Source: Tribonema minus (taxonomy: Eukaryota > Sar > Xanthophyceae > Tribonematales > Tribonemataceae). From it: a stretch of DNA of 64,000 nucleotides. How positions within the stretch are numbered: the first letter of the stretch is position 1; each line of letters starts with the position of its first letter. A program made the translations under genes and the position numbers. This document shows positions 16,485 to 59,957 of the stretch, in pieces. Below the pieces are notes generated by a model. The model saw nothing but the letters and a program-made list of their open reading frames with translations. It was not told the origin of the DNA and did not search any database. The stretch is from assembly GCA_017506865.1 (NCBI GenBank), contig JAFCMP010000390.1, positions 744,001-808,000 on the forward strand, written 5' to 3'.

Positions 16485-17552
16485 GCGGCGCGTGGTTCGC
16501 TGATGCTGCTCTCGCGGCAGTCGTAAGTAACGGTAGCGTTGAGGCCGGCGGCCCAGTGCGGAAGCGCACATGGCTGCTGCATGGCGCTTGCAGTGCCCGC
16601 CGAAGCACTGCGAGGTTCGTGTTTTGCTGGAGCGGCGGCGCTGGGTGCATTGCACATACTTGCACGTATGCGGCTTGTGGGGCGCTCGCATATATGGCGG
16701 ACATCACATAACGACGGAGCACATTAAAGCCACACAGCCATTGCTTGCTGCTGGCATGAGACAGCATTCATCAGCTCAAGTACCTCTCCATACTGCAAGT
16801 ACATGGCAAGAGAGGCTGCAACGGTCAGCTCTCGGCCGGGCATCTGCATTGGCTTTCCATTGGTGTACTACAGTAAGTGGTGTCTGCAGTGGGTTGCAGG
16901 CTAGCAAACCTGGTCTCCAGAAACGGGTTGTCATGTGCAGGCTGCATGCATGCTTGCTGCAGCCATGTGCATGTGGACACACGTTGCAGCCATCACACGT
17001 AAACATCATGCAATGCTGTCAGTAAACACCCTCTTGCCACGCTCAAACCTTGCGGCGCCTGTTCTTTACAACACTCTTAGCATGTTCATCGTGCATGTTT
17101 TCACCACTTCAATCTCTAAGCGTGTGTGAGCAGTCTTCTGATGCTCCATAGTCTGTGCCCGTGTTGCCTGTGTGCAAGCAACAACTCAAAAGAGACACTT
17201 GCCAGGTTGCATGTATACCAATGTCTGCATTGTGCTTCGACCATTGTCAGGATGAAATCTCACAAGGCCATCCCATACAGAAGTAGGTGCATTCATCTAG
17301 CGTCTGTTCTTCACACAGCCATAATCACTGTCGAGAACGCCTGCCAACTGATGGTTACAGGAGTTGGCTCTGTGGACCTGGGCTGCACACTGGTTTGAAG
17401 TGGGGTGTAGTAAAAAAGTTCACCAGTTTCCCATTTTGCAATCTTCAACTCAAACTTCTGCAACCGACAACTTCAAGTTGTGAATAAAACTGAAAAAAAA
17501 AAATCACCTCAGGTTAGGTAGCCAACGGCGGTGTCCGCAACAGCAGGCAGCG
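16485..17552. other. Intergenic, no gene seen
   Basis: Spacer between the pseudokinase and the ankyrin gene. No supported coding frame. Near its right end is AATAAA at 17483 followed five bases later by eleven A (17493-17503), the shape of a retroposed mRNA 3' end or an ordinary A-rich tract. Confidence 0.5.
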
Positions 17553-19367
17553 ATGGGATACTGTAGCAGCATCGGTCGTCCTGGTACGACACTAGGAGCG
17601 GGGAAAACCAATACGCCATCGATATCTTCAGTTCAGCATGAGACAGCAATGGATGTCTGGGAGGTCGACAGCGAAGACTGCCCCCCTAGCGCAGCAGATG
17701 TCGACGATGCGTGTGTGGAAAGCATCATCTCCTTCGTTGGTCCAGGACACTACATGCTCCTGGCCTGCTGCAAGCGCTGGCAGCACGCGTATTCAACTTG
17801 CGAGGATCAGCTCAAAATGGAGACCGCAGTCGAGAACGTCACTGGCAGCCTCTCGCTCATTCAGTGGGCTGTCAATGAGCACGGCGGCGGGCTCCGCATG
17901 AGCGCCAATACCTGCGCCATCGCCGCTGGCGGCGGCCATTTCGCCTCACTGCGGTGGCTGCGAGAGCAGGGCTGCGAGATGGACCAGCGGACTTGCGCGG
18001 GGGCAGCAAAGACGGGAGAATTCGCCATGCTGTTCTGGGCTCGCGCTAACAATTGCCCTTGGGACAGCAGCACGGCAGTAGAGGCGCTGCAGAGGCGTGA
18101 CTTTGCGATGCTGGAGTGGGCGGTGAACACCGGTCTCGAGATCAGGAACAAGGAGACAGCCATGGCGGCGGCCAAAGGGGGGCACCTGGGGGTGCTGAGG
18201 TCGCTGCGCATGCGGGGGTGGGTCGCCGGTGTGTCTGAGCAATGCGCAGCCGCCGAAGGGGGGCAGCTCGAGGTCCTGCAGTGGCTGTGGGAGCTGTGCG
18301 CCTTGCACAAGACAGGCGTCAGCACCTGGGCCGCGAGAGGAGGGCACCTGCACGTGATCGAGTGGCTCGATACGATGCCAGGTGTATTCGTGGAGAGAAC
18401 ATGCGCATGCGCCGCGGAAGGCGGTCATCTGCACGTGCTGCGGTTTACACACGAGCACGGGTGTCCGTGGGACAGCAACGTTTGCTATCTGGCAGCGATC
18501 GGTGGTCACCTAGACGTGCTGCGCTACGCCAGAGAGCACGGGTGCCCGTGGGTTGGGGAGGAAGTAGCCAGGTGCGCTGCAGCCGAGGGGCGCCTGGCGG
18601 TCCTGCAGTGGGCCATCGAGAACGGCTGCGAGTGGGACGAGGCGGTTTGCGAAATAGCAGCGCAGGAGGGGCACGTCGACATGCTCGAGTGGGCCGTTGA
18701 CAACGGCGCGCCATACGAGTACTCCAACCTGGCCGTGCACGCCGGCATCGCGGGACAGTTGCCAGTCGCAAAGTGGCTCCGTGCGCGCGGCCAGGACATT
18801 GCCGAGCTGCTGCTCAACGCCGCGCGCTACGGGCACGTCGCCGTCGTCAAATGGGGCGTCTCGACGGGCGCCGCTTCGGACGATGCCGTGCGCCCGCTCG
18901 CGTGCGCCGCGGCGGAGTGCGGGCGCATCGAGGTCCTCGTATGGATGCACGCCGCCGGCCACCTCGCGCCCGATCGTTGTGCGCGGCGGGGCAGCCCCGC
19001 GGGGCACTTCAGCGGCGGCGGCGGTGCCAGCGGCGGTGCCAGCGGCGGCGGCGGCAGCGGCAGCGGCGGCGGCAGCGGCGGCGGCGGCGGCAGCGGCGGC
19101 GGCGGCAGCGGCGGCGGCAGCAGCGTTGGTGGCGGCGGCGCGCAAACTGCAAGCTCAACATGCACGCTCGCGTTGCACGCAGCGCGCAGCGGCCACGTGC
19201 GCATCCTGCAGTGGCTCAAGGCCCACGGCCTCTTTGAGGCGCGGGGCGTGTACGCGCAGGCGGTGGAGCACGATCACGGCGACGTGCTCGTGTGGGCGTT
19301 CGCGAACGGGTGCGAGTGGGAGGAGTCCGCGCGCAGCGCGGCCGCGCTCAAGAGGAAGAGCTGCTAA
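17553..19367 (+). CDS. F-box-like/ankyrin repeat protein
   Basis: One uninterrupted frame of 604 residues. After about 45 variable residues comes an F-box-like helix pair (VESIISFVGPGHYMLLACCKRW, broken here as VESIISFVGPGHYML and ACCKRWQHAY, residues 52-82). Next are about a dozen ankyrin-type repeats of 26-33 residues with the unit GHLDVLRYAREHGCPW, residues about 95-480. A Gly/Ser tract (about 483-530) encoded by GGC/AGC triplets interrupts the array before a final repeat and the C-terminus at KRKSC. Ankyrin arrays of this GCPWD type form large families in brown algae and other stramenopiles; with an F-box-like start, a substrate-recognition role in ubiquitin ligases is possible but only inferred. 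The lack of introns contrasts with every multi-exon neighbour and would fit a multicopy or retrocopied family. Confidence 0.9.
   Translation: MGYCSSIGRPGTTLGAGKTNTPSISSVQHETAMDVWEVDSEDCPPSAADVDDACVESIISFVGPGHYMLLACCKRWQHAYSTCEDQLKMETAVENVTGSLSLIQWAVNEHGGGLRMSANTCAIAAGGGHFASLRWLREQGCEMDQRTCAGAAKTGEFAMLFWARANNCPWDSSTAVEALQRRDFAMLEWAVNTGLEIRNKETAMAAAKGGHLGVLRSLRMRGWVAGVSEQCAAAEGGQLEVLQWLWELCALHKTGVSTWAARGGHLHVIEWLDTMPGVFVERTCACAAEGGHLHVLRFTHEHGCPWDSNVCYLAAIGGHLDVLRYAREHGCPWVGEEVARCAAAEGRLAVLQWAIENGCEWDEAVCEIAAQEGHVDMLEWAVDNGAPYEYSNLAVHAGIAGQLPVAKWLRARGQDIAELLLNAARYGHVAVVKWGVSTGAASDDAVRPLACAAAECGRIEVLVWMHAAGHLAPDRCARRGSPAGHFSGGGGASGGASGGGGSGSGGGSGGGGGSGGGGSGGGSSVGGGGAQTASSTCTLALHAARSGHVRILQWLKAHGLFEARGVYAQAVEHDHGDVLVWAFANGCEWEESARSAAALKRKSC
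19010..19140 (+). repeat. GGC/AGC trinucleotide tract inside the ankyrin gene
   Basis: About 130 bp of GGC and AGC triplets encode a Gly/Ser linker between two ankyrin repeats. The reverse strand and the other frames also stay open across it, producing spurious poly-Ala and poly-Arg frames. Confidence 0.9.
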
Positions 19368-31364: not shown

Positions 31365-33385
31365 ATGAAAAGGATATCATGGCGGCGGCGGGAGGCCCGT
31401 ATTGCCAACTCTGAATCAGCGCAGAAATGCAAGGAATCCGATCTAGCGTGCGCACAAGCGCAGGACATTAGCACCAGTGCTGCAGATGGCAATGGCGCTT
31501 GTCAACAGGACGATGGCACGAGTGGCAGCAGCAGAGCAACTGGAGACGGACGCGCAGCGCACAAACGCAAGAGGGTACAGAATGACGGTTGGTCAATTTC
31601 CGATCAAACAGGCGAAGGGGAGCACACGGGCGGGCAAAGTGCAGTCAAGCGCTCTTGAACAGGTCACAACAGTCTGGAACAGCAACGTCTGATGCTAGAC
31701 GACGAAGCTGGAGGTGGAGGCAGTGCGGACCCGGAGTACAAGTGCAACTTATGCGACCTCGTGGTGACGAAGGGCATGTCGCTGCTCTCGTTACAGTAGA
31801 GGTTAAACGCCCACATCGCGGCGAAGCACCAGCGCGAACACCACAGTGGGACAGCAGCAACGTTCCTGGAGCGCTCCGACCTCAGCACCTCGCACTTGCA
31901 AACCATCTACACCGAGTGTGCCTTGTGCAAAAACCTGTTTCATGCCAACAAGACATTCGGGGTGGACAGCAGCGATCCCAGCGCGGGCAAGCGCTGCCGC
32001 AAATGCAGGCCTATCACTTCACCCGCTGCAGTGGCGGCAACATTGTCAACAACAGCATCAGCAGCACCGCTAGCACCTGATACATCGACGGCAACAGCTA
32101 CCACGTCGCTGCCACAGCAGCAACCGGCGTGCACACCCATCGGCAACCCCTACGCAAAGGGACCAGCGCACGCGCAGCAGGCACCTGCTGCTCAGGCTGG
32201 TGGCAGCAGCTCCTCCGGCAGCTCAACGAGGCCGGAACGCGGGGGCAGCAGTGCTACACGAGGGGGTCGGGGTCGCAGTGGAGGGCGCGGACGTGGCAAT
32301 GGAGGACGTGTTCGCAGCGGCAGCAATGATGCAGACATCAGCAGTAGCAGAGCGACTAGCGGCAGCAGAACCGGAGGCGGCAGCAGCAGCGGTGCCGGCG
32401 GCGGCAGTGCAGCCGGTACTAAGGACAGCGGCGCTGGCAACGGCCGCAGCAGTGATGCCAGCAGCCGCAGCGGCGGTGCTAGCAACAGCGGCAGTGGCGC
32501 GCGAACTCAAAACGGCCGCGGTGGCCGTGGCAGCGGTCGCAGCAGCGACAGCGGTGGACGAGGCTGTGGTCGTGGCGGCCGCGGCGGCGGCGGAGGGGGC
32601 CCCCGAGCGGCAGGTGCGGCGACAGCAGCGGCAGCGCCTGCAGGCGCAGCAAGTGGGGCAGGTGGGCTTTTCACGTGGACCATCTCAACCCCTGCAGTCG
32701 CAGCAGTGCTTGACAGCATCAGCCTCGATGAGCTGTGCAAGCTGCAGTTCGCGACAACTAGAAGCCTTGCTAGACCACGCAATCGCCGCTATGTAGGAGC
32801 TGCACTGGAGAACGCAGCAACACATCTGTTGGCACACACAATGACGATGTTCGTCAATGCGGCGCGGGAGCCAGATTCCGCAGGGCGGGTGCAGCGACTG
32901 CAAAGATCCACGATTCTACACCACCTCATGCCATCACTCATCACCTCCACCGATGGCGCACCTGGCATCACTCACTCCAACAGAATCAGAATGTTGGCAC
33001 GCGGTGAGCTTGACCGGTTGGTGCCAGCGCTCCTCGCACACGCGCGTGCGCACCGGCGCTGGCGCGCGCGCCAGCAAACGGAGGCAGCGATCAACGCCTA
33101 CGTCCTACAGTGCATGGGCACACGGGGGGGGCTACAGCAGGCAGCGTGTTTCCTTCAGCCCAAAACGGTGGCGATACCTGATGATGACTGCTTTGCCGCC
33201 ATGCAGTCCAAACACCCCCCCGCTGCGCCAGGGGAACAACTCCATGAGCTATCTGGCATGGTTGATCAGCTTGTGGCGAAAGCAGCCGACATGCCAGCAG
33301 AACTCAGCCTGTTACAAGGGGAGGGAATTGAGCCAGAGACGGTTGCCAAGCTCATCCAGCGAGCAAGCCCTTACAGCGCAGCCCA
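31365..33385 (+). pseudogene. Retrotransposon N-terminal part: zinc fingers and Gly/Ser/Arg-rich region, interrupted
   Basis: One frame runs from 31365 to 33385 and contains two stops, TGA at 31656 and TAG at 31797. The TAG falls inside a zinc finger: EYKCNLCDLVV before it and RLNAHIAAKHQREH after it give C-x2-C then H-x4-H, of C2H2 or BED type. A second pair of metal-binding motifs (CALCKNLF and CRKC) follows at about 31910-32010. Then come about 230 residues of Gly, Ser, Arg and Ala repeats (32180-32680) with RG/RGG motifs suited to RNA binding. The end of this frame (ETVAKLIQRASPYSAA) runs straight into the start of the reverse transcriptase after a shift of one base. Translation could begin at ATG 31692. 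Nucleic-acid binding and target recognition are inferred from related elements. Confidence 0.75.
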
Positions 33386-36300
33386 TCGGGGCTGCGCTAC
33401 AGCCACCTGCAGGATGCGCTACGCACAAGCTGGGGACGGCATGAGTTTGCTGCTGTCCTCACACGGTGGCTTCAGGCCGTTATGCGGGAGGCTGCGCGGC
33501 TGCCGGATGCCTTCTGGCAGTTGCATGGCGCGGGGCGCCTGACGCCACTTGCAGAACAACAGGAAGATGGTACAGCTAAGCAGCGGCCCATCGTTTGCGG
33601 CGAGGTGCTGCAGCGACTATGCACTTCGGTGTACGTGGCAGATCGCAAAGACTTCCTGGCGGAGCTCCTTGAGCCAGACGGGCAGTATGGGGTAGCCGTC
33701 TCAGCAGGAGCGGAGAAAGCGGCCATGGCCGGCAAACTCGCGTATGAGCTTGGTCACTGGCAGTTCATGCTGGACCTCAAGAATGCCTTCAACATGGTGT
33801 TCGTCCTGGCGGCAGCGGAATGGGTAGCAGCACAGCTGCCGGACTTCCTCGACTACTTCATCGGCACATACGTTCGCACTCGGCCACGCCTGCTGTTCCA
33901 GCACGTCGACGGCTCCACGCGCATCATCATGTCTCAGCGCGGGTTTAAGCAGGGGGACCCCGCGGCACCGATGCTCTTCTGCGGCGCCATTGCTCAGTGC
34001 TTGAAACGGTTCAATGAGGCGGCGGCCGCGCAGCGCGCGCGGAGGCGGATGGGCGCCTACATGGACGATGCCAACGTCCGAACAGGCGCTTGCACGCTGA
34101 CTCAGGATGACATACAGGCGGTGGCGCAGCTCAAACAACACTTTGCGGAGGTGGGGCTGGAGCTAAACCTCACCAAGTCACGCGCGCTGCCTGGCAGGGG
34201 GCATGTGGTGACAGACCACGAGCGGCAACTGCTGCAGCAGCTGGGCGTTCAGCTAGTGGGGGATACGGATGAAAATCAGAACCGCGGAGCTGTGTTGCTG
34301 GGGGTGCCGGTGGGCCACAGCAGCTTTGTGGACGCATGGCTGCGCAGGGAAGCGGGTGCAGGCGGGGCAGGGGCTCGATTCGCAGAGCGATGCGCGCGCC
34401 TGACATCTCCGAGGGCTATGTTCAGGTTACTGCGCTACTGCGTGGTGCCTCGCATGACGTACTGCCTGCGCACCATTCCCACTACGCAGACAGCGCCAGC
34501 CGCCAAGGAGTGGGATCGCGTCACGCAGTGGGTGCTTGAGCACTCAATGGGCCTGCAGCCACCAGGCCAGACCTGGCACCAGTTTGAGCAAAGTGGGGCC
34601 CACTTCCATCTGGCAGCGCACGGCCCAGCCTTACAGCAAGCGCGACTCCCAACACGGCATGGCGGCCTTGGCATTACCAGCGCCTGCGACATCGCTGATG
34701 CTGCGTATGTGGCGGGCACGTTGCAAGCGCTGCAACCAGCACTCTCTGGATGGGCGGGGGTGCTGCAGCAGGCGGCTCCTCAAGCGGCTGCAGACGACGC
34801 TGCTGAGGATGCGGCAACACAAGCGGCACCGGCAGCAGCGGCAGCAGCACCAGCACCAGCAGCATCAGCAGCGGCAACTGTTACAGCGGCAGCGGCGGTT
34901 GCCAGTGGAGGCGCGACCGCTCCGGCAGCGGCAACTGCATCAGCGGCAGGCCGCGCTTATGGTGCAGCCATTCCGGCAACACACGACGCAGCTGCCGCTG
35001 GATCAGGGGCCGCGGCGGCAGCACAGGCGGCACCAGCGGCAGCAGCAGCGGCGGCGCACGGCGCACCTACTCCGGCGGCAGCAGCGGTGGCGGCAGCAGC
35101 AGCTGCTCCAGCATCAGAAGCTGCTGCAGCAGCTGCAGCACATGTTGCACCTCAATTGGCCTCGGCGGCATCACTAACTGCAGCATCAACAGCAGCTGCT
35201 GCGGGCATAGGCAACACAGCTGCTCCAGGCCCTACTAGGGCTGCTGCAGCACCTGCAACAGGAGCAGCGTCGGCAGGCGGCGCCGCAATCATGCCGGCTG
35301 CGACAGCGGCAATGGCGGTGGCAACGGCCAATGCGGCAGGTGCTGCACCAACACCTGCGGCAGGAGCAACACCATTGGCAGCAGCAGCAACGGCAGGCGG
35401 CGCAGCTGCAGCACCAGCGCACGCACCAGCGGCAGCCGTCAATGCAGGCGCTGCGCGTTCCACACCAGCAATGCTACAAGGCGCAGCAGCAGCAGAGGTG
35501 GCGCGCCTGCCCCTCATGCGGACGATCGCCACAGCTGCCGCATCCCTACGTGCAGCAACAGGTGACAAGCTGGAACATACACTGCCACCAGCGCTAACGC
35601 CTTTGCAGCAGCAACCACCTACGCAGCAGCCGCCGCTGCGGCCGACAGCAGGTGGTGGCACTGGTGCGGAGGCTGTTTGCGTACTTGACGCCAGTGCTCT
35701 GCAGTTGCAGTGTAGCCTGAAGCGCCCCAATCAGAGTGAGCTTGCAGATGCCGTCGCAACCGAGCTTGCAGATAAGGTGGAGGCGGACCTGCAACAGCTG
35801 CCGCAGGGCACGCAACGCACGCAAGCACTTGCTCGATTCCGGTCGCAGCGCCACATGCACTCTATCGGCATGGCATTCCTCAACGAGCCCATGTACTCCA
35901 CGACGGCTTCGTTCGACGGCCTATCCTGGCAACTGGCCGTCAAACGCGCCATCGGAGTAGAGGAACAGACGACAGGCTGCAAGCTGTGCGGGAAGTCGCC
36001 GGGCGGCACCCTGCATGCACGGCTATGTCAAGCGCCACGCGTCAAGGCGCACGACACCATCGTCCATAATAGCGTCAAGAGGGCCACGCAGCGCATCCTG
36101 CGGCAATACCTCAAAACGGGACTGGTTGACGAGGACTACACGCCGTTTCTGGGGTCCGCCGGGCCGCCGGGGAGTCGCAGGATGGACATCGTGCTGCCTG
36201 CCGACGCCTTCCCGGTGACCGGCTACGACGACCCGACACGCCACCTACCGCTCATGGTGGACGTTACCTGCTTCGAGGCACAGGTGGCGTCGCGGGCGGC

Positions 36301-36684
36301 AAAGACTGCAGCAGACCCTGAGCGATGCTGCCGCGACCAGGAGGCCGCCAAGACTACCCACTATTCTGGTCATTATATCAGAATTGCTACAAACTTGCCA
36401 CTTTGGCAATAGGGTCATTTGGCAGCATCGGGGAGCAGGGGCGGAAGCTGCTGGAGGCTGTGGCGACGGAGTATGCCAGCAGGATGTCAGTGCCCGGAGG
36501 AGCGCGCCCTAAAGCTCTCAAGGGCATCGCCCTGGCGCGCTTACGCTCGGCACTGTCGGCAGCGCTCCACATGGCGTACTCTGGCCGTGTCATGACACAC
36601 ATGGCAGAATCCAGGGGGGGGGGGCACATGGAGGAGGACGTAGGGGAGGACCCCGAGATGCCATTTGGCGGCGGTGGCGTTTGA
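33386..36684 (+). pseudogene. Retrotransposon reverse transcriptase and restriction-like endonuclease, frameshifted at both ends
   Basis: The main frame (open 33390-36412) reads PSGLRYSHLQDALR, then RPIVCGEVLQRL, motif A LDLKNAFNMV, motif B SQRGFKQGDPAAPMLF and motif C AYMDDAN, giving the catalytic aspartates of a reverse transcriptase. RHGGLGITSACDIADAAYVA marks the thumb. An Ala-rich tract spans about 34780-35500. CKLCGKSPGGTLHARLC is C-x2-C-x8-H-x3-C, the knuckle that precedes the endonuclease in R2-type elements. RRMDIVLPADAF and LPLMVDVTCFEAQV supply its acidic residues. At about 36390 the sequence leaves frame; the likely C-terminus continues one frame over as KLATLAIGSFGSIGEQG to 36684. 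At 33385 the upstream frame would continue if one C were restored. Both breaks are one missing base in a short homopolymer, so decay and assembly error both fit. Confidence 0.88.
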
Positions 36685-47800: not shown

Positions 47801-49557
47801 CTACCGCGGACGAGCTGGTGGCGCAGTACGTCGCGGAGGCGGGCGGGCGCGCCGCGGAGCTCGCGTGGCACCTGCACTTCTACCTGGCGTTCATGTTCTT
47901 CAAGGCGAGCGCGCGCGCGGCGGTGATCAGGGCGGCGGCGCTGTGTGCGGCGCGGCGCGTGTCGCTGCGGAGGCGTCGGTGGTGTGTGCGTGTTGTCGCC
48001 GGGTGGCGGCCGCGTGGGGGGGGCGTGGGGGGGGCGTTGTGCCGTGTCATTTGTGCGACGGCTGCAGTCGCTGCTGCCACATTGCACTGCGACGTCAGCA
48101 GCCAGCGCGGCTGCTGCTGCGCAAGTTCACGAGGAAGACTCAGAGTCTTGTGCGTTTTGCAAGCCGCTGCACCCCGACATTGGACATGCCTTCATTTCCC
48201 AGTAGCAGTGCAAGTTGCATGCAGCACAGCCCGACGCACACTCACGTGGCTCCATGTACAGCTGTCACGCTTTGGGGGGGGCAGTGACAGTTGCAACGTC
48301 AATATGCACGGTATGTCGGCATCACACCTGCACTGCGGCCACCGTGCTGCTGCCCCATGACATCAATTCGCACAAAGCGGCGGCGCATCGACCCCGTGAC
48401 GCCTGTGCCTGCTGTCCCCAGCAGCACACCCTAGCGCCACTCCCAAGCTGACCCGCTCACCACCTTGAACCTCCCGCGGGGTGTCACAGAACGCAGTTAT
48501 TGCGCACGGCGTGGCGGCGCGGCTCGCGCGCGGCGTGGCCTCCTCGCAGCACGCCTCCGCCGTCGCCAGCGCTGTGCCGCGCCTCGTGGAGCTCGCCGGC
48601 GACCACCTCGCGCGCTACGCTGCCGCCGCCCCCGCCGCTGCCGCCGCTGCGCCAGCGCCGCCGGCGCCGCGTTGCAGACGCGCGCTGCTGCTGGACGTCG
48701 GCGGCGTCCTCACGGCGTCGCCGCTGGCGGCCATCGCGCGCTATGAGCGCGAGATAGGCGCGCCGCAGGGCTACATCGGGTTCGCGCTGTCGGGCGCCTG
48801 GGACGGCGGCGGCGGCGACGACAGCCCGTTCCACAGACTGGAGCGCGGCCAGGAGATGTTGGACGACGCGTTTCTGGAGCTGCTGGAGAGCAGCGTCAAC
48901 GCGCCGCCGTGCCGCGCCGCGTTCGCGGCACGCAGCGCGAGCAAAGGCGACGGCGGCAACCACCACGGTACTGGTGGCGGCCGTGACAGTGGCGGCACCG
49001 GCGGCGACGGCGGCGGTGGCACAGAGCACTTCCACGTGAGCGCCAGGGAGCTCATGACGCGCATCGCCGCGGCGTCGCGTGCGGCCGTGCTGGAGATGCG
49101 GCGCGCCGCCGAAGCCGCGCGCTCTCGCGGCGTGCTCATTGGCATCGTGTCCAATGACTTTAAGGCGCGGGCCGGGTTCAGTCTGCGAGGCGGCGGCGGA
49201 AGCGGCGGCAGCGGCAGCAGCAGCGGCGGCGGCGGCGGCGACGCCGCGCGGGGCATCGACATCTACGCGACGCTGCACGAGTTCGCTGACGCCGTCGTGC
49301 GGTCGAGCGACGTGGGCGCGCGCAAGCCGGAGGCGCGCATCTACGAGCTGGCGTGTGCGCGGCTGCGCGTGCGCCCCGTGGAGGCGGTGTTCGTGGACGA
49401 CCTGCGCGCGAACGTGCGCGCGGCGGAGGCGCTGGGCATGCGCGGCGTCCACGCGCGCGTGGGTACGCCCGCGCGCGACGTGATCGCCGCGGTGCAGGAC
49501 GCGCTGGGGCTGAGCCCGGGCGTCGCCGCCGCCGCCGCTCTGCCCAGCAAGTTGTGA
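44867..49557 (+). CDS. APH-type kinase fused to a HAD-family phosphatase (ACAD10/11-related)
   Basis: Five exons, 44867-45055, 45895-46275, 46828-47062, 47588-47922 and 48490-49557, all in phase, give about 735 residues. Residues 1-380 are an aminoglycoside-phosphotransferase-type kinase: FKGGQSNPTFLL is the glycine loop, VVLRKKP the ATP lysine, LMHGDYRLDN the catalytic loop (D257, N262) and VLDWELSTLGHPMADLA the metal-binding motif. Residues 441-725 are a HAD hydrolase: LLLDVGGVL (D449), GIVSND, GARKPEARIY and VFVDDLRANV. Two Gly/Ser tracts are inserted in it. The same two domains occur in animal ACAD10, but there HAD precedes the kinase and an acyl-CoA dehydrogenase follows. Animal ACAD10/11 act on 4-hydroxyacyl-CoA, the kinase phosphorylating the hydroxyl. 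Here the order is reversed and no dehydrogenase is present. Substrate inferred, not shown. Confidence 0.9.
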
Positions 49558-49930: not shown

Positions 49931-52900
49931 ATGGTGTTTGGCGGCAGGCTCGCAAGTCACCGTGCGCTGTGCACGCACAGGATCCTTGTTGCAGGCGGGC
50001 GCATCAGCAGCAGCAGTGCAGCAAGATGTACACGGCTTGCAGCTTTCCACACTGGACGCGGGGACCTCGCAGCCAGTGCATCGAGGCGCCTTCAACAGTG
50101 CAGCCGCCGCCAACTGTCAGCCGTGGTTGACGAGTATCCGTCGGATGCAGATACTAGTGACCAGATCCTGGTCAAAGAGGTACAGCTTTCGCAGGGCACG
50201 CTCTTCGTGGGTATGTCAGCAACGAGTTGTGTCGAGATTCCCGGCAACGGAGGTCTCCGCATAGGCACCTACGCGAGTCCCGCTCACGCTCGAGACGAGA
50301 CGATCAAGCTGACAGAAGCCATGTACTTGAAGCACAGGCAAGCTACAACTGCACAGCAGCACAACCTGTGTTGCTGAATGGCTACAACACTGCACTGCTT
50401 TGCATTTGTCTTAGCTGTGCTGCTTGGTGTTCTGCAGGGTCAGAGCAGCAGCGGTTCGCATCCTTGTGTCAACATGACATTTGCCTTGGACGCCTTTGCA
50501 CTGCAGAAGTGTCACAAAAAGTCTCATTGGTTGCTACCAAGTGCCTTGCATTGTTGAAGTTGATGTAGCCAAATCTTCCTTACAGGTAGACCACTTTTGC
50601 ACCTGCAAGATGACAACGTGGTTGAAACCATTGCCTGCTAACGCCAACACCACTGCATGCCTTTCTTCAAGTTTCTTGTCAAGCTGGCAAGAGGCCAGCC
50701 GGCTTTACTCAACAACAGCGCATGCGCTGCTGCTCATTTGAGATTGTGCACTCCAGACCGGCTGGTACCAGCAGGACCATCAGTGCACAACTGCTTGGCT
50801 TATTCTTTGATTGTGGGGCAAGCATTGCAGAGTGTATGGCATGCGCCTGCACCCTCCCCGCCACATGGCTAAATGCAAGACATGGCCGTCGACGACCTTC
50901 AGCAAGCAATGATATGCAGCAGCCATGCTGGCTTGCGGGGCGGTGTTTTCATGTTGTTTCAAGCGAGCACCTCGAGTCGCCTGCCATCCCTCAGTCACCA
51001 TTAATGCGAGATACGAACCCAGTGCCCGCCGCCATGGCGCCACCCCTGTTGCCACGCCGCTGAGCAACAGCACGCCCCCCCCCCCCCCCCCTTCCCCCCT
51101 CTCCCCCTCCAGAATGTACAACACGGGGTTCACCGGCGCCAAGCTCGTCTTCGCCGCGCACGCGCCGCCGCCGCTGTCGCCGCCGCGCGCCCTGTGCAAG
51201 CGCGCGCTGATGGACGAGGTCGCCGCCGTCCTCAACTCCATGCGCGGTGCCGTCTATACCGGGTGCGATATGGGCACCACGCACGCCGACATGGAGCGGC
51301 TCAGCGCGGCGTCGCCGTACGTGCTCGCGGGCATCGGCTCGGACATCGACCCGAACGCAGCGACGGCGGCGGGCGCGTTCGCCGCGGTCGCGCGCGCCGC
51401 GGAGCGCCTCGGGCTCGGCAGGGGCTTCAGCGTGCTGGTGCAGGTGATGCGCGACGCGCGGCGCGAGTTGGTGGTGGCATGCACGCGGCGTGTATGGCAC
51501 GAGCAGTGTGCTGGTGGGTGGCCGAGTGAGAGCGTTGGGTCTGGGACGGCCAGTGAGCACGCTGTGCCTCGCTCGCAGTGCCGCTGCGCATGCGTGGCGT
51601 GTGGCACTGTGCAGCGAGGCCTCTGCGGAGCACGCCGCTGCTCACAACCCTCGCCACCCGCTGTCCATCGGCTCCCCGCATGCACCGTGCATACCTCATT
51701 GACACCTCATCGAGGCCATGACACACATGCGTCATCTGCGCGCGTCCCCTCACTGCCACACCACACCAGGGCGCCGGCAACGTGGGCACGGACCTCGCGC
51801 GGCGCCTCGTCCAGCACGGCGCCACCGTGTACGCCACCGACATTGACGTGCGGCGCGCCGACATCCGCGGCGTCACCAACGTCTCGCACGTGCGCGACCT
51901 GAGCACCATAGACGTCGACGTCTTCTCGCCCAACGCCGCCGCCGGCGTCATCACGGAGGACCTGGCGCGCCGGCTGCGGTGCAGGTGCGGCTGCAGCAAC
52001 GCTCAGACTTAGGATGAGGCGTGTACGCAAGTAGAGTCTTCCGGGGCTGCTGCGCTGCGCGCGTACGCTGCGGTGGAGGGCGTCGACGCAGCGGGCGCGC
52101 TGCGCGGTGTGAGCGCGCCCTGTGCTGGGCGCTGACCCGACGGCGCTGATGCCTCTCTTGCTGTATGCGTTGCGGGGCGGACGAGCGCCGGTGTGGGGCG
52201 CGTTGCGCGCGCGCAGGAAATGCCATGTTCATCTGTGTCGCACCTTCATCTGTGACTTGCCTGCCCTGTGCTGGCTCAGAGCGTGATTCGGCCGCGCTGA
52301 TGTACATGCATGCGGCCAGCAGAGAACAAGCTTAGGCTGAATCCATCGCCACCAGACGATACGTCCCCACTGCTCCTTGCAACTATGGGTGCTGGCGCAT
52401 GCCATGTCTGCATCAGCTTAAGATGTCAGCTTTAGATGGCCCAACTGGCGGCACGTCGTGCCTATCATTCCCATCTCACACCGTGCCTATCATTCCCATC
52501 CGCCACGCAATACCCGCACGTGCTCCTGCATCATCCTTAAAATGCGCTCCAATGACTTGCAAACCCCCATCGCCATCGGTCGCTCCGTACACTGGCAGGG
52601 CCATCGTGGGCGCCGCCAACATCCCCTTTGCCTCCGAGGCAGCGCGGTCCATCGCGATACGCCGCGGCATCGTCGCCGTGCCCGATCACATCGTCAGCGC
52701 CGGCGCCATCATCGTGGACTCTCTGGAGTGGAAGCACGAGGGCTACGCAGCGCTGCGGCCATCGCTGGCGTATGCCTTCATCATGGATCAGGTACGGTCG
52801 TTGATTGCAAGGATGGGGCAGCGCTGGGGGCTTGAGACGGGCCAACAGCGAGGGAGCGCGTCTGCGCCCTGCACCTGACTGTGCGCGCAATATGTGTAGC

Positions 52901-55900
52901 TGTCGGGCGGCGTTTGCGTTTCGCGCCGCACGATCAATACGCACGACGGCCAACCTGGTGGTTGCAAACATGCATGACCTTGAGTCACTCAAGGCTGTGC
53001 TGTCGGTGCTGTCATTTGCAGGTCGCCACCAAGACGGACGCGTGGCTGGCATTAGCAACGCCGCTTCTGAGCGCCGCCCAGCAGCAGCAGCCGTCTCACG
53101 CCACGGCACCAGCAGCAGCTGCCCCACATCCGCAGCGCAGCGGCGGCAAGCTGCAGCCGGCGTCTGACGGCAGACGAGTAGAGCGCGCGCAGGCGGTCCT
53201 CGCTGCTGCCGCGAACGCCAGCAGCATCGTCATCAGCACCAGCAGCAGGGCCGCTCTCCGCGCAGGCGGCAGCGCGCCGCTGACCAACAGCAGCGCCGCC
53301 GCTGCGCGGCGCCACCACTCCACGCGCAGCGGCGCCCTGCACACCTCCGCCGCAGCCAGCAGCAGCAGCAGCGCGCAGCGCCACGCGGCGCTCTCCAGCG
53401 CCGTCGCCGCGGACCCTGCGTCCGCGCCCGTCGGCGCGCGCCTCGTGCCGTGGCTCGCAGGCGCCGCCGAGGAGCGCGACGTGCTGGTGGTGGGCGCGGG
53501 GATGGCGGGGACGGCGGCGGCGTACCAGCTGGCCGCGCGCGCGCCGCGGCTGCGCGGCGTCGTGCTGGAGGCAGGCGAGGGCGTCGCGCCGCCGCGCGGC
53601 TCGTCGCACGGCGACTCGCGCATGTTCCGCCGCATGTACAGCGACCCGTACTTCAGGTGCGCGGCGCACGGAAGGGGGGGGGGGGGGGGGGGGATCGTTG
53701 GGGGGGGGTTGGTTTGCTGGCAGTGCTGGTGGTGTCACAGGTAGAAGGGGGGCGGGGCCAGTCGGCAGCGGTGTTCTGTCTGTGCATGCGCTGCAGTGCT
53801 AGCTACCCTGTCACTCCACGCATGGAATAGCAGGTGCCAGGCTGTCTTGCTTGCTTGTGGAATCAGAACTTTACGGTGCGATCCGCGCCTGAGGCTCGTC
53901 AGCGCGTGCCCCTGGTCACGCATCACACACATGAGGGCAGCTGTCCAGCGCCGCTGCTGATCCCGCAGCAGGCAAGCAGTCAATGCCTCGTCACCGTCTG
54001 CGGCGGCAACCGCGCTGCAGCCGCGCCGCACCAGCACCATTCCCCGCAAGCGATGCCACCACCGCCTCAACACCCCCCTTCCCCCCCCCCCATACACCCA
54101 CCGCAGCGACCTGCAGGACCGCGCGCTCGACATGTGGCGCGCCCTCGAGGCGGAGGCGCGCACGCCGCTGCTCGCGCCGCACGGCCTCCTGTTCTACGGC
54201 GACGCCGACACGGGCGAGACCGTCGAGGGCTCCATCCCCGGCTGCGCGGACGTCATGCGGCGCCGCGGCGTGCCGCACGAGTACTTCGCCAGCGGCGCGG
54301 CGCTCGCGGCGCGCTTCGGCTGCGCGCCGCGCCCCCCCGCCGGCGGCGCCGCGCATGTGGGGCTGTTCGAGCCCGCGGCGGGGTCCGTGGACGCGGGCGC
54401 CGCGTGCCGCGCGATGATGGCGCGCGCGGCGGACGGCGGGCGCTGGGAGCTGCGCACGCACGCCGCCGTCGCGGACATCTGGCGCGAGGACGGGGGGGAC
54501 AAGTGAGTCAGCGGCGTCGCATGATGTGCGCACAGAGTGCGTGTGTGGTGTGAGGGCGCTGGGGGATGCGCGGCGCGGCGCGGCGCGGCGGCAGTGTCGT
54601 CGTCCGGCTCGCCGTGCTGCACTGCTGTCGCTCTGCAGCGCGAGTGAGCAGTGGGCGCGGCGCCTGGGGCGTGGGCTTCGCAGCTGGTGATGGCGCAGCG
54701 GACCGCGTGCAGGACGTCCGCGGCTGGCATGCCTGGCAAGGACAGATTCAGGAGCCTGAGCTGTGATCGCTTTGAGATCATCTGCTTGTCGGTGGTGTTA
54801 TAGCTCATGTTCAGTACTGACACTAGGGCTCATGTTGAGCACTGGCACTGAGGCTGAGGGCGGTGGAGAAGGGGGGGGGAGGGGTCGGGGGTGCTTGGCC
54901 TTTTACCAGCATACACCCCATTGGGGGCTTGCCTTGCACACAAATGGCCTTTGATGCTAGCATCCAGCCGCGAATCAACATGGTCTGAATGCGGCGCACA
55001 AGTCGAGATGAGGCAAGTGCCACCACGGCAATGGCAAGCTCATTGCGGCAATGCCAGCGGCACCATGCATCTCGCACACGTGCCGGCAAATGACAACACG
55101 CCAGCGACGTGCCAGTGCGCCTTGACGCGCCGGCGCGCGTACGCTGCTGCCATCCTGCGCGGTCTTGCCCTCGCTCATTGCACGCTGCTGCACCATGCAT
55201 TCACTTCACCGATGCATCTGCTGCGCGCTCAGGTACAATGTGGTCACCAGCGACGGCCAGGTGTTTGTGGTGGACAGCATTGTTATCGCGGCAGGCGCGT
55301 GGACCAACGAGTTGCTCAAGCACTTTGGCATAGAGCTGGACCTGGAGATCTGGGGCGTGCACTGGTGAGTACAATGCTGCCCACGCGCGCGTGTTGCACG
55401 CCGCACAGAATTGCAGGGGAGCGTGCACGATGAGAGTTTGCAGCAGCATGGCTAGTGGCGGTCGCAGAGGTGTCAGCATGCAGCCAGCCAGCATGGTGCT
55501 TGGCGCTGTGTACATTGCGACAAGCCAGGAGCCCTGACTGGGCATATGCGTGCATCAGAGCAGTCCACAATGTACATTGTCTTCAAGCAAGCGCGTTGCG
55601 ACTGCGGTGTTGCGTCAGGCGCTCGAAGCTGCACGGAATGCAGCCATGTCAATGACCACAAAACGCGTATGCCAACAGAGCACTGCCCGCCGCGCCATCA
55701 CTCACCACAACATGTGCTGCCACTTGTCAACATGCCAGCGTGCATCCGTAAGCAGTGAGCGAAGCACTGTTCGCCCGCCAGCAAAGCGACCAGAATTGCG
55801 GTCGCAGCAAGTGACCAGCACACGGGTCCTATCTTCAACTTCAACATTGCCGCAGCAGTGTGCGCCGTCGTGCGCTCACCGTCACATTCACACCAGCCCA

Positions 55901-58900
55901 CAGCATTGCCGACACCGCTACAGCGCCATCGTGCCACCGCCCCATTTTGCAGCCGCAACATCTGTGCTGCCACCGCGCCTTACATACAAGCTCACGACGC
56001 CGCCGCCACTGCCCCCTCTGCGTCGCTGCGCCGCGCGCAGGGGGCACTACAAGCTGGCGGAGGGCGCCCAGTCGCCGCAGTGGTTCCACTTCGGCAAGGA
56101 CGACGAGCTCGTGTACGGCTTCCCGGGGCGCGACGGCGTGGGCAAAGTGGGCGCCGATTTCTCGCCGCAGCGGCACCGCTACAAGAGCATGGACGACTTT
56201 GAGTATGCGCCCGATGCGGAGGTGTCGTCGCAAATCACGGAGTTCGTCCAGGGGCAGGTGTGTAGCCATGTAGTTGACTTGCTGCGGTAGTGATGTGTAG
56301 GAGCGTGCATGGTGGGGCTGCGTGTGTGTGCGTTGCCGTAGACCGCGTCTCGGAGCTGCGTGGCTGTTTCAACGGTTGACAGGGGGGCGTCTGCAATGTG
56401 GCTTTAAAGCACATAGGTTGCACATGGAAGCAAGACAGCTACCAAGTGGGACTAACGTGGCGAGACAGCCATTGCGACCAACGCCTGTAACAATCAGACA
56501 TCCAACTCGCTGCATATGTTCAAGCAGAGCAGTTCACACCACGTCGCCATCCACCCGTACTGCGTACTCACCGGCCCGGCGTCCTCTCTTGCCTTCATGA
56601 CAGTGGGGCGCCCTGTACAAGGAGCCAGTCAACATGGTCACCAGCCCCTACACGATGACCAAGGACTCCATGTTCATCCTCGACACGCTCCCCGGGCACC
56701 CCAAGGTGTCCCTCTTCTCGGGCGGCAACGGGCGTGCCTTCAAGTTCGCTCCGATACTGGGGCGTGCGCTTGCAGATCTGGTGAGTGAGGGTTGCCATTA
56801 GGATCTGGTTACCATTACAGTAGGGTTTGATATGTGGCAGTGCTATCCTCGTCTTTGTCGATGGTCAGTCTTGGCGCACTGTAGATGGTCCATATGCGTT
56901 TTTGCACAGGCACAGCTGCCGCTGCTTCACTTTGCGCGGGCTTGCCGGCAAGGCCTTCTGTGCGTCGACTGTGTGTCATCAAACAAATGGTACTTGTGTC
57001 CCGATACCTGGCCGTATGTATGCACGTATTGCACAATGCATGATGCAGGGCACTCTACGAAGTCATGGTACGAAAATGAGCATTGTGTGGTTGTCAACGT
57101 TCTTGAGCCTGCCAGTCGTACTGGCAACTCTGCCACCACCCATTTGGCCAGCTATGACTGCCACACTCGCACTTGTGTTGTGCGGGAGGCCGTGTCACCA
57201 GATCTTGTGTGTAGACACTCAAGCTGGTCAAGCACCCCCTGATATCATATGCTGCCCTCTGGAAGAGGATGCCCTAGGTGGAAACCCGAATTTGCGTGCA
57301 ATGATGACGTGTGCAGCATGTGCCTCCCTCGCACTCGACCACGCGGCACGTCATGCCATCAAGCGCACTCAAGCGATGCACATGCGTGATGTATGTGCTT
57401 GTTTTAAGGCAGTGGCTTGCACCTTGCGCATTTGGCTAAAGCCAGCCGCGCGCGGATCCCTTGAGTGCAAGCCTGCGTGTGTGCTGTAGCACCGCGTGGC
57501 TGCACCTTTGACCATGCTATGAGATAAGCTTGCTTTTGACAGGACACCACACAGGTCGTTGTGATTGCCCAGCTCGCTCGCTTACATGATGGCGCTTGAG
57601 TTGCTTGCTGCATGTTGTCATTGCAGTCGCAGCAACTCAACTTCAACTCAACTTCAATTGCAGGTGCTGGGCGATGAGCCCGTGTTCGACATAGAGCGCA
57701 TGCGCATGACGCGGCCAGGGCTCCTGGCAAAGTCTGGAGCCCCCGCCGCGAGCAGCGCCGCCGCCAGCAGCAGCAGCAGCACTGCCAGCACAGCCGGCAG
57801 CGGCAGCATCACAGGCACCAGCGGCGCAGGCAGCAGCGGCGGTGCCGCGAGCGGCGGCGCCAGCGACGACAGCGACCACGTCAGCAATGGCAACGGCAGC
57901 AGCAGCGGCAGCACGTCCGCCTTCGGGCGCGCTCATGTGCCGTACGGCAGCGAGGGCGCTGCCACCTACTCCAACCTCACTCTCGGCTGCTTCGACGTGG
58001 TGATGAACGCCAGAGACCTCGCGGAGGACTGCGTGGCAGCGCTCAGGTTGGGCGAGGGTAATGGCGGCGCGCGCCGCGTGCGCATCGCGGACTACGGCAG
58101 CGCCGACGGCGGCCCGCTCATGCCGCTCATCGCGCACCTGCGGAGCGCCATCCCCGAGAGCTGTGAGATGGAGGTGAGGAGAGCGCTGCGCAATGCGAGT
58201 GATGGTTCTTTGAAAGGCATCGTGTCAACAAGGCCCCTATATCATCCGCAATAGCAGTCATTTCAACTTTGCTTGGAGGGCTGCAAGGGGTGCGTTTGAT
58301 CACGTGTCTCAGTGTGCCCCAATGGCATAGTCTACACCGACTCCCATGCAGCATTCGCAACATATTAGCGGCCTGGGATTTCATAGTATTGTGCCACAAT
58401 GTCATGGCCATGAAAAAACAATGTCCAGCCGCCCTCTGCATTGCTGACCCGGCTGCCCTCGCGGCCTGACACACGCTGGCGCCGCCGCAACTCCTTTCCA
58501 CCGCGCGTCTGCATACACCACGCCATCGCTCACGCAACCACCCCTGGCAACGCCGTCTTGTCTTGCAACGCGTCCACGACCCAGGTGTGCTTCGAGGACC
58601 AGCCCAACAACGACTTCAAGTCCCTCTTCTACCTGGCCAACGGCATTGCTCCGCTGCCCGTCGCCGCGCCGGCGCTGCGCGACGTGCCCGGCGTCTTCTG
58701 GAGCGCCACCGGCCGCTCCTTCTTCGAGCAGTGCTTCCCCGCGGCGTCCGTCGACATGGGCACGTCCTTCACGGCGCTGCACTGGCTCAGCGCCATGCCG
58801 TGCGGCATCCCGGACGCTGCTCACCACACGCAGAGCGGAGACGCCGATGCGGGCGCGCGGTTTGAGGCGCAGGTGCGTCACCACTTGCGGTTGAGGGGTT

Positions 58901-59957
58901 TGCGGGTATGGTGCGGTGCTGAGATGCGTGAAGTGCGCGACAGGCATTGGCGTTGGCGCGGGAGGGCATGTGATGGATGTCTTGGGGTGCTGGAGTGCTC
59001 GAAATACAACGAAACGCCATGCATAACACGGAGAGGTGCGCGCGAGCCTGAGGTAGACAACGCCCGTTAACAACCTACTACCTAGCCCGCGGTCCACCTG
59101 CAGCAATTGCACGATTAACAGAGGTACAGTCACGCCTGTGTGCCATGTGAAATGCGCATATTACGGTGGGCTGTAGCATGTGCAGGAGCCAGCGGCATGC
59201 GTGACTCTAGATCAGCGCAGGCGCACTTGAACTTGTTGAACATGTGCTTCATCTGTACCCGCTGACCCTGTGGCTCTGCCCAGCTCTACACCTATGACAG
59301 CGCAGCGGCGGTCGAACTCAACAGCGCCCCCCTTTGTCACTTGCCCACGAGCACACCATACCCCCCCTCCCCTCTCCCCCTCTGTAACTTGCCCCACACC
59401 AGGCCGCAGCGGACTGGCACACGATCCTCACGCACCGCGCGCGCGAGCTGCGCCCAGGCGGCCAGATGGTCGTCGCCACGCTCGCGCGTTCGCCGGAGGG
59501 GCGCTACCTCGGCCACAGCGGCGCCGCCGGCGAGGCCAACATGTACGCAGTGCTCGACGCGTGCTGGGCGCGCATGCGCGACGAGGGCGCCATCACCGCC
59601 GCCGAGTGCGCGGCGGCGTCCTTTTGCAACTACTACCGCGGTGAGCGCGAGCTGCGCGCGCCCTTCGAGGACAGCGACGGCGGCGCCGCCCTAGGCCTCG
59701 CGCTGCGCAGGCTCGAGTGGCGCGAGATCGCGTGCCCGTTCGGGCGCGGCGCGGGGACCCCGGAGCAGCTGGTCGGCACCGTCCGCACGTGGTCCAACAG
59801 CACGTTCCTGTCGGCGCTCGACGAGGGGCGCGGGCGCGAGGCGCGCGCGGCGCTCGTGGACGAGCTGTTTGCGCGCTACCGCGACGCCATCGCGGCGGAC
59901 CCCAGCGCGCACCACATGGACTATACGCACGCGTACCTGCACTTTGAGAGGGTGTAG
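49931..59957 (+). CDS. Three-enzyme fusion: amino-acid dehydrogenase, sarcosine-oxidase-type flavoenzyme, SABATH methyltransferase
   Basis: Twelve exons: 49931-50337, 51113-51443, 51770-51984, 52599-52791, 53022-53656, 54107-54502, 55233-55364, 56041-56257, 56604-56780, 57664-58173, 58585-58872, 59403-59957. They sum to 4056 bases with every phase consistent, or 1351 residues. An Arg-rich presequence (MVFGGRLASHRALCTHRIL) suggests mitochondria. Residues about 80-400 are a Leu/Val/Phe dehydrogenase: FTGAKLVFAA (K146), TGCDMGTTHADM (D188), GAGNVGTDLA (247, NAD site), GIVAVPDHIVSAGAI. A linker follows. Residues 533-925 resemble monomeric sarcosine or pipecolate oxidase: DVLVVGAGMAGTAAAY (FAD), SSHGDSRMFRRMY, SIVIAAGAWTNELL, SGGNGRAFKF and MTRPGL. 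After a Ser/Gly linker, residues 990-1351 form a SABATH SAM-dependent methyltransferase: VRIADYGSADGGPLMPL, DQPNNDFKSLF, ARELRPGGQMVVATLA. The first intron has a GC donor. Substrates unknown. Two adjacent genes remain possible for the first junction only. Confidence 0.82.
50338..51112 (+). other. GC-AG intron in the three-enzyme gene
   Basis: The exon ends AAGCACAG and the intron begins GCAAGC; the acceptor CTCCAG at 51112 follows 17 C. Joining gives LKHRMYNTGFTGAK, which fits the dehydrogenase family. No GT in the region gives an in-frame join. Confidence 0.8.
51075..51112 (+). repeat. 17-C polypyrimidine tract before an acceptor
   Basis: Seventeen uninterrupted C, then mixed C and T, end at the acceptor AG of exon 2 of the three-enzyme gene. 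Confidence 0.85.
53674..53693 (+). repeat. 20-G homopolymer just inside an intron
   Basis: Twenty G begin 17 bases after the donor that follows the FAD-motif exon, with a further G run at 53701. Unlike the C tracts this one is G on the sense strand and lies at the 5' end of the intron; it could fold as a G-quadruplex in the RNA. Confidence 0.85.

What the first reader, a model, noticed from the sequence alone, without database searches (positions are those of the whole stretch)
49931..59957. A single gene joins an amino-acid dehydrogenase, a sarcosine-oxidase-type flavoenzyme and a SABATH methyltransferase
Twelve exons add up to 1352 codons with no phase conflict. The exon 53022-53656 contains both the dehydrogenase C-terminal helix (VATKTDAWLALATPLL) and the FAD-binding site (VVGAGMAGTAAAY). 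The exon 57664-58173 contains both the oxidase C-terminus (FDIERMRMTRPGLL) and the SAM-binding motif (IADYGSADGG). I know of no described enzyme combining these three families. Inference: N-methyl or cyclic amino acids could be oxidised by the middle domain and the resulting amino acid deaminated by the first, with the third methylating a carboxyl or amine, a self-contained pathway in mitochondria.
Basis: partly seen in the sequence, partly recalled or inferred. Interest (0 to 1): 0.92.

Follow-up and report, generated by a model that had tools for sequence, protein, structure and literature searches.

The report
Three-enzyme fusion, likely homarine synthase
One algal gene really does join three enzymes in one protein; the same three are neighbouring genes in ocean cyanobacteria, mostly beside a betaine transporter, and residue evidence suggests that together they turn lysine into the sea osmolyte homarine, for which we found no biosynthesis genes in the papers we could search.

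Summary
Twelve exons (49931-59957) encode 1351 residues: a Leu/Phe-dehydrogenase-type domain, a nikD/sarcosine-oxidase-type flavoprotein and a SABATH methyltransferase; both joins lie inside single exons. The gene belongs to the yellow-green alga Tribonema minus. Relatives with all three domains, 50-56% identical, occur in a green alga and in metagenomes, and as one frame in the bacterium Shewanella surugensis. In marine Synechococcus the three are adjacent genes: all 53 genomes with the oxidase, of 300 searched, have both others beside it. A BCCT betaine transporter follows in 30 of 31 Synechococcus-type loci, in none of 14 Prochlorococcus loci. The oxidases keep nikD's Asp276, where sarcosine oxidase has His; the dehydrogenases have Asp and Asn in the side-chain pocket, as a lysine binder might; the methyltransferases lack the carboxylate-binding Gln. 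Best reading: lysine, piperideine-2-carboxylate, picolinate, homarine, an osmolyte measured in Synechococcus, diatoms and other algae. No activity has been shown; N- versus O-methylation is the weakest step.

The parts
49931..50337 (+). Exon 1: putative organelle presequence and start of the dehydrogenase; pocket Asn (LeuDH L40 position) at 50246-50248, substrate Lys (K68 position) at 50330-50332; GC donor
51113..51443 (+). Exon 2: dehydrogenase; catalytic Lys (K80 position) 51141-51143, catalytic Asp (D115 position) 51267-51269
51770..51984 (+). Exon 3: dehydrogenase, NAD-binding GAGNVG
52599..52791 (+). Exon 4: dehydrogenase; pocket Asp at the LeuDH V294 position 52717-52719
53022..53656 (+). 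Exon 5 (join 1): dehydrogenase C-terminal helix, low-complexity linker, PVG..W motif, oxidase FAD-binding site (53478 on)
54107..54502 (+). Exon 6: oxidase; nikD Glu101 position at 54225-54227
55233..55364 (+). Exon 7: oxidase
56041..56257 (+). Exon 8: oxidase; nikD Tyr258 position 56114-56116 and Asp276 position 56156-56158
56604..56780 (+). Exon 9: oxidase; Ser at the covalent-flavin Cys position 56643-56645, Arg at the nikD W355 position 56733-56735, Lys358 position 56742-56744
57664..58173 (+). Exon 10 (join 2): oxidase C-terminus, Ser/Gly linker, methyltransferase start FGRAHVP (57922 on), Cys at the SABATH Gln25 position 57988-57990, SAM motif IADYGSADGG (58084 on)
58585..58872 (+). Exon 11: methyltransferase, HWLS motif 58780 on
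59403..59957 (+). Exon 12: methyltransferase C-terminus and stop

Best explanation
A single-chain, three-step biosynthetic enzyme for homarine (N-methylpicolinate). Step 1: the dehydrogenase domain removes the alpha-amino group of L-lysine with NAD(P)+; 2-oxo-6-aminohexanoate closes by itself to piperideine-2-carboxylate (P2C). Step 2: the nikD-type FAD domain oxidises P2C by four electrons to picolinate. Step 3: the SABATH domain methylates the ring nitrogen with SAM, giving the zwitterionic osmolyte homarine. Shown: the gene, its three domains, the conserved fusion, the bacterial operon, its tie to betaine transporters in Synechococcus, and the residue patterns. Inferred: all substrates, the N-methylation and any channelling between domains.
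For: Gene and fusion; Shewanella surugensis one-frame fusion, 1170 aa. Operon: MT-LDH-oxidase-BCCT in Synechococcus WH7803; tblastn finds LDH in 52 and MT in 48 of the 59 oxidase loci, which reach at most 6 kb to each side. In 300 genomes of the WH7803 family the oxidase is in 53, LDH in 54, SABATH in 56; all 53 have all three, adjacent (Fisher p 1.6e-58 and 8e-56, nominal because the genomes are related). Betaine link: BCCT directly downstream in 30 of 31 Synechococcus-type loci (L070 is cut; L044 and L070 come from one MAG) and downstream in a Myxococcales locus; OpuAC (glycine-betaine ABC binding protein) in Okeania. Oxidase: in 136 rows (135 of the 136 proteins, P0013 dropped, plus the Shewanella fusion; one search listed 120 of 343) nikD D276 is D in 133 (2 N, 1 gap) and E101 is E in 132 (Q in 4); MSOX has His at the first. 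nikD is the best PDB match by sequence and by Foldseek. Dehydrogenase: D at V294 in 85 of 85 rows, N at L40 in 61 of 62 rows read, K68, K80, D115 kept (V294 numbering checked on 6acf). MT: A (125) or C (17) in 142 rows, some sequences twice, at the SABATH Gln25 position. Streptomyces mashuensis and griseocarneus: LDH-oxidase followed by a stand-alone AMP-binding ligase, like nikkomycin's lysine-P2C-picolinate-picolinyl-CoA route (PMC4021061, passages). Producers: homarine in both Synechococcus strains tested, WH7803 among them, 4 of 6 diatoms and one E. huxleyi strain (PMC8269262 passages; corrected values PMC10134881, whole text); dominant with glycine betaine in axenic Thalassiosira weissflogii, known from the prasinophyte Platymonas (PMC7024275 passages).
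Against: No activity, metabolite or transcript from Tribonema itself; I saw no report of homarine there (not searched for), and Tribonema is, as I recall, largely freshwater. E101 is a weak discriminator: MSOX has a shorter loop with no clear equivalent (K, S, with a Glu one place on), and four relatives have Gln. The covalent-flavin Cys of MSOX is Ser here and C in only 19 of 136 rows; nikD Trp355 is Arg, Gln or His. nikD leads MSOX by only about 6 bits. The diatom relatives seen (P0073, P0089 and the dehydrogenase-oxidase proteins that group with them) have no methyltransferase domain, and no diatom methyltransferase was found; whether those species make homarine I did not check. BCCT is absent from 28 of 59 loci, including 14 of 14 Prochlorococcus. 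Strain WH8102, the richer Synechococcus producer, could not be identified among the genomes; in one Synechococcus genus 6 of 34 genomes lack the oxidase. Seven of 59 oxidase loci show neither partner, one of them (L044) because it is cut. Loss of Gln25 argues against carboxyl methylation but does not prove N-methylation. Heal et al. derive homarine from tryptophan via quinolinate.
Confidence: 0.67

Rival explanations
1. Same first two steps, but the methyltransferase esterifies picolinate to volatile methyl picolinate (a signal or defence compound) instead of making homarine.
For: The closest SABATH structure is a carboxyl methyltransferase (fatty acid O-methyltransferase 5f2k); Pfam names the family carboxyl methyltransferase.
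Against: The carboxylate-binding Gln25 position is Ala or Cys in all 142 rows; betaine transporters beside the Synechococcus operon fit a zwitterion, not an ester.
Confidence: 0.11
2. Ornithine instead of lysine: deamination gives pyrroline-2-carboxylate, oxidation pyrrole-2-carboxylate, then methylation.
For: The pocket Asp and Asn would fit either basic side chain.
Against: The nikD route is known for the six-ring substrate P2C (PMC4021061 passages); no N-methylpyrrole-carboxylate osmolyte is known to me in these taxa.
Confidence: 0.06
3. A two-carboxylate substrate such as diaminopimelate, leading to dipicolinate and its methyl derivative; the Arg at the nikD Trp355 place would bind the second carboxylate.
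For: Arg at that place in 64 of 136 rows, including all 17 fusion proteins checked.
Against: 60 of 136 rows have Gln instead, Synechococcus SYN20 among them; no such osmolyte is known to me.
Confidence: 0.04
4. One reading: the flavoenzyme oxidises N-methyl or cyclic amino acids, the dehydrogenase deaminates the product, the third domain methylates.
For: The oxidase belongs to the broad MSOX/MTOX family (NCBIfam MTOX 176-187 bits for three of its members, cut-off 257).
Against: Below the MTOX and soxA cut-offs; Asp in place of the MSOX His (MTOX by eye); betaine transporter context; basic-side-chain pocket in the dehydrogenase.
Confidence: 0.06
5. Two or three separate genes mis-joined on paper.
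For: No Tribonema RNA read was examined; in-frame ATGs lie upstream of both downstream domains.
Against: Joins inside exons; three-domain relatives in transcript collections (P0005, P0008); one uninterrupted bacterial frame.
Confidence: 0.02

Closest known systems
Nikkomycin NikC-NikD-NikE (SanL and homologues): lysine to P2C to picolinate to picolinyl-CoA
   Same: Lysine-to-picolinate logic; oxidase homologous to NikD with R53, E101, Y258, D276, K358 kept; two Streptomyces relatives carry a ligase next door.
   Different: Step 1 is a dehydrogenase, not an aminotransferase; methyltransferase instead of CoA ligase; fused in one chain; no Cys at the flavin position; Trp355 replaced.
Monomeric sarcosine oxidase / N-methyltryptophan oxidase
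   Same: Fold, FAD site, R and K of the active site.
   Different: Asp in place of the MSOX His; flavin Cys mostly Ser; below NCBIfam cut-offs.
Leu/Phe/Trp dehydrogenases (ELFV)
   Same: Fold, catalytic Lys/Lys/Asp.
   Different: Polar pocket: Asn for L40, Asp for V294; below the ScyB cut-off.
SABATH methyltransferases (mycobacterial fatty acid OMT, plant SAMT, caffeine and trigonelline synthases)
   Same: Fold, SAM motif, HWLS motif; some plant members N-methylate ring nitrogens (caffeine-type structures in the list; trigonelline synthase recalled).
   Different: Gln25 position Ala/Cys; no NCBIfam model matches the Synechococcus enzyme.
Glycine betaine and ectoine pathways (recalled)
   Same: Small-molecule osmolyte made by a few enzymes and served by BCCT/Opu transporters.
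   Different: Different chemistry and enzymes.

Membership tests
ELFV amino-acid dehydrogenase | Family profile match | tested here: met
   PF00208 3.9e-17; PheDH 1bxg 1.1e-28
ELFV amino-acid dehydrogenase | Catalytic K68, K80, D115 equivalents | tested here: met
   63/63, 64/64, 74/74 rows read of 85
Leucine/phenylalanine dehydrogenase proper | Apolar side-chain pocket (L40, V291, V294; roles recalled) | tested here: not met
   N at 40 (61/62 read), V or I at 291, D at 294 (85/85)
nikD-type P2C oxidase | R53, E101, Y258, D276, K358 | tested here: met
   (functional roles recalled; E101 a weak discriminator)
nikD-type P2C oxidase | Covalent-flavin Cys321 and mobile Trp355 | tested here: not met
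   Ser and Arg in Tribonema; family counts
nikD-type P2C oxidase | Four-electron oxidation of P2C | not testable with these tools
   needs enzyme assay
Monomeric sarcosine / N-methyltryptophan oxidase | MSOX His269 equivalent; NCBIfam cut-off | tested here: not met
   Asp instead of His; bits below cut-off
SABATH methyltransferase | Family profile and SAM motif | tested here: met
   PF03492 6.1e-26
SABATH carboxyl methyltransferase | Carboxylate-binding Gln25 (role recalled) | tested here: not met
   A 125, C 17 of 142 rows; Q in 8wwq and 6c8r, the 5f2k row was a gap
SABATH N-methyltransferase | Transfer to ring nitrogen | not testable with these tools
   needs assay
Homarine biosynthesis | Found in producers, linked to betaine transport | tested here: inconclusive
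   WH7803 operon and transporter link; WH8102 and T. pseudonana not checked by name
Homarine biosynthesis | Loss of the genes abolishes homarine | not tested
   experiment proposed

The most novel reading that the evidence does not exclude
The missing biosynthesis of homarine starts from lysine, not from tryptophan/quinolinate, in both ocean cyanobacteria and algae; some algae and at least one bacterium run all three steps in one polypeptide that may pass the unstable intermediates from site to site.
Probability: 0.58. Interest if true: 0.93.

Novelty: new variant of a known kind. Interest (0 to 1): 0.86.

Why it matters
Homarine is a marine osmolyte and a substrate that bacteria draw down fast (PMC12817926, passages). 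Heal et al. 2021 write that it had no characterised biosynthetic or degradation pathway, so gene-based techniques could not see it (PMC8269262, passages). If the reading is right, a three-gene marker (or one fusion gene) lets its producers be counted in ocean metagenomes and gives a testable lysine-to-homarine route shared by cyanobacteria and algae. Even without the product, a conserved three-enzyme fusion mirrored by a tight bacterial operon is a strong case for one undescribed pathway.

Tried and rejected
Separate-gene reading: rejected (joins within exons, relatives, Shewanella frame). MSOX/MTOX-type substrate: disfavoured on Asp276 and cut-offs. Structure: the single-sequence model of the Shewanella protein was useless (pLDDT 32); the Tribonema model with 23 sequences was good (pLDDT 80.7, pTM 0.64, Ser/Gly linker 774-847 below 50). 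The methyltransferase search listed 120 of 924 matches, all but one 78-97% identical to the WH7803 enzyme, so a diatom methyltransferase could not be seen. The covalent-Cys column was two positions off and was read again at the MSOX Cys. A BCCT search of the Tribonema genome did not complete.
Full report
OBSERVATION. The window lies in a 158-Mb assembly. Rebuilding the gene gave 12 exons, 4056 nt and a 1351-residue product without phase conflict. Pfam finds the three domains in order: ELFV dehydrogenase (best stretch 288-364), DAO (535-901), Methyltransf_7 (1066-1339). The same protein is deposited for Tribonema minus as P0002, 1197 aa. That model differs in the presequence and in the first linker.

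THE FUSION IS CONSERVED. A search with the oxidase-methyltransferase part listed 17 proteins, only the 8000 best candidates being scored. By their precomputed Pfam domains ten of the 17 (P0002-P0009, P0011, P0012) hold all three; P0004, P0006 and P0009 look truncated. They include MMETSP/EukProt entries, one named Nephroselmis pyriformis, a green alga (P0008; taxid look-up). Porphyridium purpureum (P0010) has oxidase-methyltransferase; Dunaliella salina (P0015) and four others have dehydrogenase-oxidase; one transcript (P0013) has dehydrogenase and methyltransferase with most of the oxidase missing. A wider oxidase search (343 matches, 120 listed) added diatoms (Thalassiothrix antarctica by taxid; Pseudo-nitzschia multiseries by its label, recalled), trebouxiophytes, Synechococcus, Myxococcota and Streptomyces. 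Shared motifs mark the joins: P(V/I)G...W before the oxidase in most of the 17 rows printed, FGRAHVP at the methyltransferase start in the nine algal rows for which that join was printed, two of them the Tribonema gene. Trees were built with six of the ten three-domain proteins plus relatives. The algal fusions form one clade in each domain (DAO 100/100, LDH 100/100, MT 98/99); the DAO and MT clades include the dehydrogenase-less Porphyridium protein, the LDH and MT clades P0013. Shewanella surugensis (L071, 4879-8388) encodes all three in one 1170-residue frame; it falls on the algal side for DAO (100/99) and MT (100/100) but is unresolved for LDH, and its branches are long.

THE BACTERIAL OPERON. 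One scan of species genomes gave 59 loci with the oxidase. tblastn found the dehydrogenase in 52 and the methyltransferase in 48 of the 59; some misses are cut contigs, seven show neither partner. In Synechococcus WH7803 (L020) the order is methyltransferase, dehydrogenase, oxidase, BCCT transporter. BCCT follows in 30 of 31 Synechococcus-type loci and in a Myxococcales locus, in none of 14 Prochlorococcus loci nor in the other 13. Okeania has the trio in another arrangement with an OpuAC protein. In 300 genomes drawn from the WH7803 family the oxidase occurs in 53, the dehydrogenase in 54, any SABATH protein in 56; all 53 hold the three side by side. WH7803 has a single PF03492 match, the operon's own. 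In two Streptomyces the pair dehydrogenase-oxidase is followed by a stand-alone AMP-binding ligase, with no SABATH hit in the loci and none in the S. mashuensis genome; the ligase's substrate is not told by profiles.

RESIDUES. nikD numbering was checked letter by letter; that these residues line its active site is recalled. Over 136 rows (135 proteins plus Shewanella) D276 is D in 133 (N in 2, one gap), E101 is E in 132 (Q in 4), R53 and K358 invariant where read, Y258 in 135. MSOX has His at D276, and the MTOX sequence shows a His there by eye. The MSOX flavin Cys position is S in 94, C in 19, H in 11. nikD W355 is R in 64, Q in 60, H in 8. In the dehydrogenases the catalytic Lys, Lys and Asp remain where read, while L40 becomes Asn in 61 of 62 rows read and V294 Asp in 85 of 85. 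An acid and an amide in the pocket suit an amino-bearing side chain; that is inference. The methyltransferases have Ala or Cys where the carboxylate-binding Gln sits (role recalled from SAMT).

STRUCTURE. The model of P0002 with 23 aligned sequences has mean pLDDT 80.7 and pTM 0.64. Foldseek against the PDB ranks four nikD entries first, then sarcosine oxidases, with phenylalanine dehydrogenase from rank 32 (the 50 rows shown contain no methyltransferase).

FUNCTION. The order of the domains, the pocket, the nikD-like Asp and the transporters agree on lysine, P2C, picolinate, homarine. The lysine-P2C-picolinate part is known chemistry in nikkomycin formation (PMC4021061, passages). Homarine is reported in Synechococcus WH8102 and WH7803, 4 of 6 diatoms and one E. 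huxleyi strain (PMC8269262 passages; corrected values in PMC10134881, whole text: up to 18 mM, about 0.2 mM in WH7803), in Thalassiosira weissflogii and Platymonas (PMC7024275 passages) and in the eight species of the part of a table seen in PMC8703288 (passages). Heal et al. derive homarine from tryptophan via quinolinate, with an uncharacterised enzyme, and write that no pathway was characterised. Searches that named homarine showed, in their listings of titles and abstract openings, no paper naming these genes; some searches listed only 25 of 162, 15 of 1,241 and 20 of 116. The library holds no preprints and few subscription papers.

LIMITS. No enzyme was assayed. The diatom methyltransferase, WH8102 and named producers such as T. 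pseudonana were not checked. Tribonema is not known to me as a homarine producer.

Noticed in passing
window 33332-36409 (+): A 1026-codon open frame with a reverse transcriptase domain (RVT_1, E 9e-11): a likely retroelement upstream of the gene.
   Followed up: no
window 17484-19364 (+): 627-codon open frame with ankyrin repeats.
   Followed up: no
window 48469-49554 (+): HAD-like hydrolase frame just upstream of the fusion gene.
   Followed up: no
L071:4879-8388: Shewanella surugensis, a bacterium, carries the same three-domain fusion in one frame; on the DAO and MT trees it joins the algal side, so transfer between algae and bacteria is possible.
   Followed up: partly
P0013 (865 aa, jgi/mmetsp/eukprot): Transcript-derived protein with dehydrogenase and methyltransferase but most of the oxidase missing: exon skipping or a decayed middle domain.
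   Followed up: no
L063 and L075 (Streptomyces mashuensis, S. griseocarneus): Possible natural-product cluster: dehydrogenase-oxidase pair, AMP-binding ligase, aminotransferase, glutamine-synthetase-like ligase, epimerase, gamma-glutamyltranspeptidase; perhaps a picolinate-derived compound.
   Followed up: partly
window intron 50338-51112: GC-AG intron (donor AG|GCAAGC) in an otherwise GT-AG gene.
   Followed up: no
G035:C23:76575-77579: One genome of 300 has the dehydrogenase (61% identity) without a match to the oxidase or a SABATH gene.
   Followed up: no
P0022, P0024, P0025, P0026 (Myrmecia, Apatococcus, Trebouxia and one unnamed): Four relatives, three of them named trebouxiophyte algae, have Gln at the nikD Glu101 position: perhaps a changed substrate or activity.
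   Followed up: no
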